Positions 29,501-32,500 of a stretch of 64,000 nucleotides of DNA are shown piece after piece (position 1 is the stretch's first letter; every line of letters begins with the position of its first letter). Both the position numbers and the translations under genes were made by a program. The notes below the pieces were generated by a model that worked only from the letters and a program-made list of their open reading frames with translations, did not search any database and was not told the origin of the DNA. This stretch comes from Candidula unifasciata (taxonomy: Eukaryota > Mollusca > Gastropoda > Stylommatophora > Geomitridae): contig CAJHNH020008455.1 of NCBI GenBank assembly GCA_905116865.2, forward strand, positions 124,001-188,000, given 5' to 3'.

Positions 29501-32500
29501 CATTCTCTCTGTTATCTTCCATTCTTTCTGTAAGCTCCAGCCATTGCAGCCCCTAAAACTCATCCTTTGTGCTGGTGACTGCTAGCCGCTTTAGTAAGTA
29601 AACAAACACTAACAGAAGTAACTCAACGAAAGCAGCAGTATTCTTTTTCTTCTTCACTTCTTCTTTTACTACTTTGGGTGTCAAGGGAGGTATAAGGTTC
29701 TACTTCTTGCTCTTCTGACTGCCTCAACCATATACACGTTGTGCTTTTGTAGAGTTTCTCTGAAGTTATCTTTCCCTCCTGTTCTTGGTCAGCCTTGTGC
29801 TTTATGTCCTTCTGTTTTGGTGTATGTCTTGTATGGTGTCACAAGGCATTCTCTCTAAATAGGGAGACCATTTGATTCGCTTTCTTTGTATGCAGTTTAG
29901 AGTTGGTTCTATTTGTCTTTTTCTCTTATGGCCTTATTCTGGAAGCTACTGTGGTGTAGTGGCTAGACACTTGCCTGCCAGTCGGAAGGTCATGGTTTCA
30001 GATCCTGACGGAGCCAGACTTTTTTTTTTTCATTTGTGACCTTGGCTCCAAGGTCGACCCAGCCTTGAATGGTTAAAATATGGGGGCTGACTGCAGTCAG
30101 ACTAATACTTCATGTTTGACAAAGGCTACTGGCCGAAACATTACGTTATTTGTGTTGTTTTGTGCACGTTTTTCTGCTTCCTCATTTGGTTAAGCTTTTT
30201 AGTGAAATTTCACTTGAATTCCTTGACTGGTTACCAGGTGGAATTCTGGGAAGTAAAGGTGACTGGCATGGTGTTGATCACAACACCCACCAAGTGCTGA
30301 TTGGTCTATACAATATATAGGTCTAGCCCTATATGCCCAGTACGCCTGAAGGCTGTTTTACCTCATTCCTGGTTTTACTTTTTCTGGTCACCCCTGCAGC
30401 CCTCCTTAGACATGAAGCAGCAGTAATCGAAGTAATTGTCTTTAATTGACAGGTGTTTACGGGTGAACCCGTAGCCCTCCTTAGACATGAAGCAGCAGTA
30501 ATCGAAGTATTTGTCTTTAATTGACAGGTGTTTACGGGTGAACCCGTAGCCCTCCTTAGACATGAAGCAGCAGTAATCGAAGTAATTGTCTTTAATTGAC
30601 AGGTGTTTACGGGTGAACCCGTAGCCCTCCTTAGACATAAAGCAGCAGTAATCGAAGTAATTGTCTTTAATTGACAGGTGTTTACGGGTGAACCCGTAGC
30701 CCTCCTTAGACATGAAGCAGCAGTAATCGAAGTAATTGTCTTTAATTGACAGGTGTTTACGGGTGAACCCGTAGCCCTCCTTAGACATGAAGCAGCAGTA
30801 ATCGAAGTAATTGTCTTTAATTGACAGGTGTTTACGGGTGAACCCGTAGCCCTCCTTAGACATAAAGCAGCAGTAATCGAAGTAATTGTCTTTAATTGAC
30901 AGGTGTTTACGGGTGAACCTGTAGCCCTCCTTAGACATGAAGCAGCAGTAATCGAAGTAATTGTCTTTAATTGACAGGTGTTTACGGGTGAACCCGTAGC
31001 CCTCCTTAGACATGAAGCAGCAGTAATCGAAGTATTTGTCTTTAATGGACAGGTGTTTACGGGTGAACCCGTAGCCCTCCTTAGACATGAAGCAGCAGTA
31101 ATCGAAGTAATTGTCTTTAACTGACAGGTGTTTACGGGTGAACCCGTAGCCCTCCTTAGACATAAAGCAGCAGTAATCGAAGTAATTGTCTTTAATTGAC
31201 AGGTGTTTACGGGTGAACCGTAGCCCTCCTTAGACATGAAGCAGCAGTAATCGAAGTAATTGTCTTTAACTGACAGGTGTTTACGGGTGAACCCGTAGCC
31301 CTCCTTAGACATGAAGCAGCAGTAATCGAAGTAATTGTCTTTAACTGACAGGTGTTTACGGGTGAACCCGTAGCCCTCTTAGACATGAAGCAGCAGTAAT
31401 CGAAGTAATTGTCTTTTAACTGACAGGTGTTTTTACGGGTGAACCCGTAGCCCTCCTTAGACATGAAGCAGCAGTAATCGAAGTAATTGTCTTTAACTGA
31501 CAGGTGTTTACGGGTGAACCCGTAGCCCTCCTTAGACATGAAGCAGCAGTAATCGAAGTAATTGTCTTTAACTGACAGGTGTTTACGGGTGAACCCGTAG
31601 CCCTCCTTAGACATGAAGCAGCAGTAATCGAAGTATTTGTCTTTAATGGACAGGTGTTTTTGGGTGAACCCGTAGCCCTCCTTAGACATAAAGCAGCAGT
31701 AATCGAAGTGATTGTCTTTAACTGACAGGTGTTTACGGGTGAACCCGTAGCCCTCCTTAGACATAAAGCAGCAGTAATCGAAGTAATTGTCTTTAACTGA
31801 CAGGTGTTTACGGGTGAACCCGAAGGGATTGGATGAAGAAAGCAAAGACTATTTATCTCTCTATCTTCTGCTGGTGTCCTGCAACAAAAGTGAAGTCAGA
31901 GCCAAGTTCAAATTTTCTATACTCAATGCAAAACGTGAAGAGACCAAAGCAATGGGTGAGTGCACAAAAGTAGGGAGAACAGTTTTATTTTACAGGCACT
32001 GTGTGTTCTCACCAGTCTCTCTGTTGTCTGCCATTCTCTCTGTTATCTGCCATTCTCTCTGTTATCTACCGGTTTCTCTGTTGTCTGCCATTCTCTCTCT
32101 GATAGATCTGCACATTCTCTCTGTTTAGACTGCACCCCAGAACACTCAGAAGACTTGTTATAAGTACTATTAGTCATCTCTGTTATCTGCCATTCGGAGT
32201 GCAATGATAACCCAACTATCTACCAGCCAGTCTCTCTGTTATCATCAGCCTTCCTTTGTGGGTTCAGTGAAGCCTTTATCTTCTTGATCACATCTCTGGC
32301 TCCACTTTCTGGATAGGTGAGTGCAATAACACACATCCCATTTTTTAATCTCGCACACATGGATGGCCTCACTTTCCACATGTACCTCATTTTAATTTCA
32401 GTCTTTAGATTTAGAAAGTCTACAAATTTCAATACCTTGGTTCCCAGGGTTGACCTACCTTGAGTGGGTACGAGGTACAGTCCTGGGAAGTAAAGGTGTC

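What the first reader, a model, noticed from the sequence alone, without database searches (positions are those of the whole stretch)
30395..31955. SPOP exon preceded by 18 tandem decoy copies of its own 3' splice site
Seen: the acceptor TTTAAYTGACAG plus the first 19 coding bases of the SPOP exon at 31804 are repeated every 75 bp, 18 times, upstream of the real exon. After the 19 bases every decoy diverges to TAGCCC instead of AAGGGA. Joined to the previous exon, a standard decoy reads C-L-R-V-N-P then TAG, an immediate stop; the indel copies also stop within about ten codons. Only the last unit is productive. Known: SPOP dosage matters and its MATH domain selects substrates. Inference: the array could compete for splicing and lower SPOP output through nonsense-mediated decay, or copy number could tune it; or the spliceosome reliably picks the last acceptor. 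A coding segment and its splice signal forming a minisatellite unit is unusual.
Basis: partly seen in the sequence, partly recalled or inferred. Interest (0 to 1): 0.92.

Follow-up and report, generated by a model that had tools for sequence, protein, structure and literature searches.

The report
Minisatellite of eighteen decoy splice acceptors
In a SPOP gene, likely from a gastropod, the splice site and first 19 coding bases of one exon are repeated 18 more times just upstream; the repeat likely grew by chance duplication and splicing would mostly pick the last copy, which makes it a natural test of how cells choose among near-identical splice sites.

Summary
A 75-bp tandem array (30398-31822, 19 copies, 97% match) ends inside SPOP exon 31804-31955; each unit carries that exon's acceptor and its first 19 coding bases. 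Of 18 upstream copies, 14 are identical in the coding part, and 18 of 18 would give a stop codon 205-1481 nt before the next junction. From 28349 on the gene looks alive (canonical sites, open frame, 98% identity to two unnamed relatives), but its 5' exon lacks the start codon that relatives have. The host is probably a heterobranch gastropod. Evidence favours chance: 17.5% of the window is tandem arrays, so an array meeting a SPOP exon edge is expected (2.8 of 16; 1 seen), and decoy coding copies vary about as much as the intron parts. Local splice scores do not separate real from decoy; only the real acceptor is followed by a purine-rich run and its donor 152 nt away. My reading: a neutral minisatellite, mostly spliced at the last acceptor, with decoy joins degraded. 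Closest precedent: the human 6-16/IFI6 minisatellite, which multiplies donor sites. Every copy also reads CAG|GT, so traceless re-splicing is possible, though the rebuilt donor scores weakly.

The parts
30398..31822 (+). 75-bp tandem array, 19 copies; copy 19 runs into the real exon
30453..31729 (+). 18 decoy exon starts (first base after the AG): 30453, 30528, 30603, 30678, 30753, 30828, 30903, 30978, 31053, 31128, 31203, 31277, 31352, 31427, 31504, 31579, 31654, 31729
28349..28470 (+). preceding SPOP coding exon, donor GTG|GTGAGT
31804..31955 (+). real SPOP exon (MATH domain), 152 nt; first 19 nt lie in the array; donor TGG|GTGAGT
31835..31842 (+). GAAGAAAG purine run soon after the real acceptor, 0 copies in the array or in the intron 28471-31803; possible splicing enhancer (inferred)
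30400..30400 (+). first base after a further acceptor-like CCCCTGCAG at the array's left edge, score 4.26 against 3.48 for the real site (recalled weights)
35184..48690 (+). remaining SPOP coding exons 35184-35311, 36783-36960, 40503-40558, 44344-44466, 45912-46054, 48546-48690 (stop)
26450..26515 (+). 5' exon ...[22 protein letters not shown]; lacks the start-codon segment seen in relatives

Best explanation
A 75-bp segment made of a SPOP exon's 3' splice site and its first 19 coding bases stands in 19 tandem copies; it likely arose by neutral tandem duplication, and splicing would mostly use the last copy, with decoy joins predicted to be destroyed. Shown: array, copies, stops, open reading frame from 28349 on. 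Inferred: about 56 bp of intron plus 19 bp of exon were duplicated and then multiplied by slippage or unequal exchange, the exon staying attached to the last copy. Inferred: the splice-site core cannot tell copies apart, so choice falls to exon context; only the last acceptor starts a compact 152-nt exon with a purine-rich run and a donor, while decoys would give 227-1503-nt exons. Any decoy join would stop within 10 codons and likely be removed by nonsense-mediated decay, at small cost.
For: Array and units. Open frame across exons 28349-48690 with 16 of 16 mapped junctions GT or AG, and MATH/BTB/BACK domains. Residues 68-117 of this exon are invariant in 49 of 50 columns over six aligned rows (window, three named gastropods, two unnamed). 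18 arrays (score at least 200, period at least 10) cover 17.5% of the window; 1 of 16 exon edges falls in an array against 2.8 expected, P(at least 1)=0.90. Divergence from consensus is 2.0% in intron parts and 1.7% in coding parts, so decoy coding copies show no extra constraint. Decoy scores are 3.13-4.57, the real one 3.48; the real site ranks 18th of 220 AGs in the intron, and the two best (6.95, 6.32) are outside the array, so local score alone cannot pick it (recalled weights). GAAGAAAG follows the real acceptor and occurs 0 times in the array or the rest of the intron.
Against: No transcript of this species was seen; which acceptor is used is unknown. By proximity to the 5' site (recalled principle) upstream decoys should have an advantage. 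Decoys 17 and 18 would give exons of 302 and 227 nt, within ordinary exon size. Predicted RNA accessibility of the real site lies within the decoy range. Splice weights are recalled and human-like, not gastropod. That GAAGAAAG is an enhancer here is inferred. All 18 decoys keep AG, though chance alone gives about 0.48 for that at 2% divergence. Mapped exon bases are depleted in arrays (19 of 1126), so an array crossing into coding sequence is not simply random.
Confidence: 0.6

Rival explanations
1. Dosage array: the decoys compete for splicing, a sizeable fraction of transcripts is lost to nonsense-mediated decay, and copy number tunes SPOP level.
For: 18 of 18 decoys give an early stop 205-1481 nt before the next junction; acceptor scores are like the real one (3.13-4.57 against 3.48).
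Against: No sign of constraint on decoys; overlap with an exon edge expected by chance; no conservation or expression data either way.
Confidence: 0.15
2. Traceless re-splicing: each copy reads CAG|GTGTTT, so a decoy once joined to the previous exon rebuilds a donor and can be spliced on to a later copy, and whole units can leave as 75-nt introns; mistakes correct themselves.
For: CAG|GTGTTT in 19 of 19 copies, donor score 1.51, inside the gene's own donor range of -2.02 to 6.77 (recalled weights); by sequence, joining at any standard copy leaves the same junction. Recursive splicing through rebuilt donors is known (PMC6224609, passages).
Against: The donor rebuilt after joining (GTG|GTGTTT) scores -1.63, below 7 of 8 own donors; the exon junction complex represses such sites in human cells (PMC6224609, passages).
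Confidence: 0.1
3. The locus is a decayed or alternative copy of SPOP, so the array is free to grow because the gene no longer matters.
For: The 5' exon lacks 24 residues that P0002 has; the part with the start codon is also in P0001, P0003 and P0004 (4 of the 4 aligned relatives that reach that far). A tblastn of the segment over the whole window found only weak pieces, the best 7 of 11 residues at 17644.
Against: The eight later exons are in frame, with canonical sites, and 98% identical in protein to P0001 and P0012. An assembly gap or an unmapped exon would explain the missing segment as well.
Confidence: 0.1
4. Assembly artefact: copy number or array is created by assembling noisy reads.
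For: Runs of near-identical units are hard to assemble; raw reads are not available here.
Against: Units differ by shared and private changes, including single-base losses and small insertions, and the array joins the real exon without a break.
Confidence: 0.05

Closest known systems
Human 6-16 (IFI6/G1P3) minisatellite (Turri, Cuin and Porter 1995)
   Same: A minisatellite reported to provide multiple splice donor sites (title seen in reference lists; use of two downstream repeat units as donors stated in PMC4526556, passage; the 1995 paper itself is not held)
   Different: There donors are repeated and used; here the acceptor plus 19 coding bases is repeated, with a stop in each decoy and no known use
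Intron gain by tandem duplication (potato RdRp, PMC4974935, AGGT model and boundary-crossing case; fission yeast 24-nt repeats with AGGC proto-sites, PMC3629103; passages)
   Same: Tandem copies of a segment that holds splice signals; the potato case crosses an intron-exon edge; each unit here holds AG|GT
   Different: Here an existing intron is lengthened by 18 copies; no new intron is evident
Recursive splicing / RS-exons (PMC6224609, passages)
   Same: Exon that begins with a partial donor directly after the acceptor AG
   Different: Nineteen copies at one intron end; weak rebuilt donor; no evidence of use
Decoy exons in retained introns (OGT, PMC12017769, passages)
   Same: Mostly non-productive splice sites in an intron; inclusion would give a premature stop
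   Different: OGT has a distinct decoy exon studied by experiment; here a homogeneous array of copies of the real site

Membership tests
Minisatellite | tandem units of roughly 10-100 bp, many copies, high similarity | tested here: met
   75 bp, 19.0 copies, 97%
Minisatellite / VNTR | copy number varies between individuals | not testable with these tools
   one assembly only
Splice-site minisatellite (6-16/IFI6 kind) | each unit carries a splice site of the host gene | tested here: met
   GACAG|GTGTTT in 19 of 19 units; but acceptor here, donor there
Splice-site minisatellite (6-16/IFI6 kind) | more than one copy is used in mRNA | not testable with these tools
   no transcripts of this species reachable
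Decoy exon of retained introns (OGT kind) | inclusion gives a premature stop | tested here: met
   18 of 18
Decoy exon of retained introns (OGT kind) | acceptor and donor pair that promotes intron retention | not testable with these tools
   possible donors occur in the units (CAG|GTGTTT 1.51 in 19, CGG|GTGAAC 2.05 in 18); retention needs RNA
Recursive splice site | acceptor directly followed by a donor-like GT | tested here: met
   CAG|GTGTTT, 19 of 19
Recursive splice site | strong donor rebuilt after the first step | tested here: not met
   score -1.63, below 7 of 8 own donors (recalled weights)
Intron gain by tandem duplication | the intron itself derives from the duplication | tested here: not met
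   the intron's first part, 28471-30397, holds no copy of the unit, only 11-12-bp matches

The most novel reading that the evidence does not exclude
The array is a self-correcting splice ratchet: every unit is both acceptor and donor, any number of units can be removed without trace, and copy number sets how long splicing of this SPOP intron takes and how much of the transcript is lost.
Probability: 0.07. Interest if true: 0.88.

Novelty: new variant of a known kind. Interest (0 to 1): 0.5.

Why it matters
Nineteen acceptors with almost identical sequence from 56 bases before to 19 bases after the cut stand in one intron of a conserved gene, and only the last is productive. That is a natural cis-competition experiment: junction counts would show directly how position, exon size and exon context decide among equal 3' splice sites. 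If decoys are used, copy-number variation would become a length-tuned dosage control of an E3-ligase adaptor; if not, it shows how robust exon choice is.

Tried and rejected
RNA structure as the discriminator: folding gave z of -0.50 (one unit), -2.05 (two units; 5 of 200 shuffles fold as well) and +0.82 (last unit plus exon); predicted local accessibility of the real acceptor lies within the decoy range. Set aside.

Constraint on decoys: intron and coding parts vary alike; retention of all 18 AGs has a chance of about 0.48 under neutrality. No inference possible either way.

Homologous arrays elsewhere: the long minus-strand open frame through the array was searched as a protein, on the chance that other assemblies carry it; 12 candidates, none at E 0.001 or better. 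The unit has no other copy in the window. Rfam: 0 matches at the gathering threshold. Pfam on 9 hand-picked open frames of the 752 listed: 0 of 9 with a match at E 0.01.

Literature: (minisatellite, tandem repeat or VNTR with splice terms) returned 0 papers; some searches gave the precedents cited; (sacoglossan genomes) gave nothing that I used. These were narrow full-text searches of an open-licence library, so absence in them does not show that no such acceptor array is in print.

Full report
What is there. Tandem Repeats Finder reports 30398-31822, period 75, 19.0 copies, 97% matches. The motif GACAG|GTGTTT occurs 19 times on the + strand and not on the - strand. The last occurrence is the acceptor of a real exon, 31804-31955, whose 50 residues agree with human SPOP at 48 of 50. 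Nine exons were mapped, 26437 (provisional start) -26515 to 48546-48690; 16 of 16 junctions between them are GT or AG, and the frame is open to a stop. Pfam finds MATH, BTB and BACK domains.

What the decoys would do. Joined to the preceding exon, 14 of 18 decoys read W-CLRVNP-stop and the other four also stop within 10 codons; the stop lies 205-1481 nt before the next junction, which by the usual rule of nonsense-mediated decay (established knowledge, not tested) marks the transcript for decay. The coding 19-mer is identical to the real one in 14 of 18, and the 56-bp upstream part differs by 1-4 edits.

Host. Of 1651 proteins at E 1e-20 or better, 120 were listed and six fetched. The best-scoring named one is Plakobranchus ocellatus, P0002 (96% over aligned columns; 92%'s listing); Candidula is at 93%. 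P0001 (374 aa, contig of 3806 bases) and P0012 (327 aa, contig of 2183 bases) are 98% identical and unnamed; coding regions that span 20-22 kb in the window lie there on short contigs, so they are probably cDNA of relatives (inference). They suggest correct joining of this exon in relatives and say nothing about this species. The host is probably a heterobranch gastropod (inference).

Is the overlap surprising? Eighteen arrays (score at least 200, period at least 10) cover 17.5% of the window. Rotating them gives a mean of 2.8 of 16 SPOP exon edges inside an array; 1 is observed; P(at least 1)=0.90, P(at most 1)=0.21. Only 19 of 1126 mapped exon bases lie in these arrays, well below 17.5%, so exons seem to avoid arrays and this is the single intrusion among nine exons. 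An array at an exon edge therefore needs no function; one that crosses it and persists is the less ordinary part.

Origin. The left edge reads ...CCCCTGC|AGCCCTCC, the unit junction ACCCGT|AGCCCTCC and the right edge ACCCG|AAGGGATT. CLRVNPKG is present in all six aligned SPOP rows, so the exon is the source and the decoys the copies. Two sets of identical units (1, 3, 5, 6, 8; and 10, 12, 13, 15, 16) fit local expansion by slippage or unequal exchange (inference).

Which acceptor wins. With recalled human-like weights decoys score 3.13-4.57 and the real site 3.48; among 220 AGs in the intron the real one ranks 18th, and the two best (28829 at 6.95, 28892 at 6.32) are outside the array. Local strength cannot be what picks the real site. 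RNA folding does not help. Context might: GAAGAAAG lies 31 nt into the real exon and occurs 0 times in the array and in the intron 28471-31803, and the real exon is 152 nt against 227-1503 nt for decoy exons. Against this, proximity to the 5' site (recalled principle) would favour early decoys. The choice remains unmeasured.

The AG|GT twist. Every unit reads CAG|GTGTTT, a possible donor (1.51, within the gene's own range of -2.02 to 6.77). Joining to a decoy gives AAGTG|GTGTTT, from which a second step to the last copy would restore the right mRNA. That rebuilt donor scores only -1.63. Recursive splicing and its repression by the exon junction complex are known (PMC6224609, passages). I keep this as the novel case.

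Compared with what is known. A minisatellite that supplies splice sites is known on the donor side (6-16/IFI6; title, passage). Tandem duplications can create introns (PMC4974935, passages; PMC3629103, passages). Decoy exons are linked to intron retention (PMC12017769, passages). Searches returned no paper on an acceptor array, but those searches were narrow. Filed as a new variant of a known kind.

A caution about the gene. The 5' exon reads [22 protein letters not shown], where P0002 has 24 more residues including MAVCRVPTPPPPDVSC; over the whole window only weak pieces of that segment matched. Either the start lies elsewhere, or this assembly or locus has lost it. This leaves room for the reading that the locus is not a normal SPOP gene.

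Noticed in passing
26450-26515: SPOP 5' exon lacks a 24-residue segment of the Plakobranchus protein P0002; its start-codon part is also in P0001, P0003 and P0004; only weak pieces of it matched anywhere in the window
   Followed up: partly
29116-29531 and 32012-32125: The same 19-bp minisatellite (CCATTCTCTCTGTTATCTG) lies on both sides of the exon; a piece at 30221-30317, SINE-like by eye, recurs at 32458-32550 (75%)
   Followed up: partly
16862-17553, 35331-36007, 53471-53845: A 43-bp minisatellite family occurs in three places; the first is in the opposite orientation to the other two (81-86% identity); the one at 35331 begins 20 nt after the end of a SPOP exon
   Followed up: partly
44467-44934: TG-rich tandem repeats begin at 44477, just after the SPOP donor at 44467, which scores lowest of the gene's eight (GTTAAA, recalled weights)
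   Followed up: no
13234-14383, 41943-44053, 59307-60004, 61779-62267: Further long minisatellites with units of 19-26 bp and up to 96 copies; 18 arrays cover 17.5% of the window
   Followed up: partly
30329-31378 (-): Open frame of 349 aa on the minus strand through the array, made possible by the 75-bp (25-codon) period; no relatives found
   Followed up: yes
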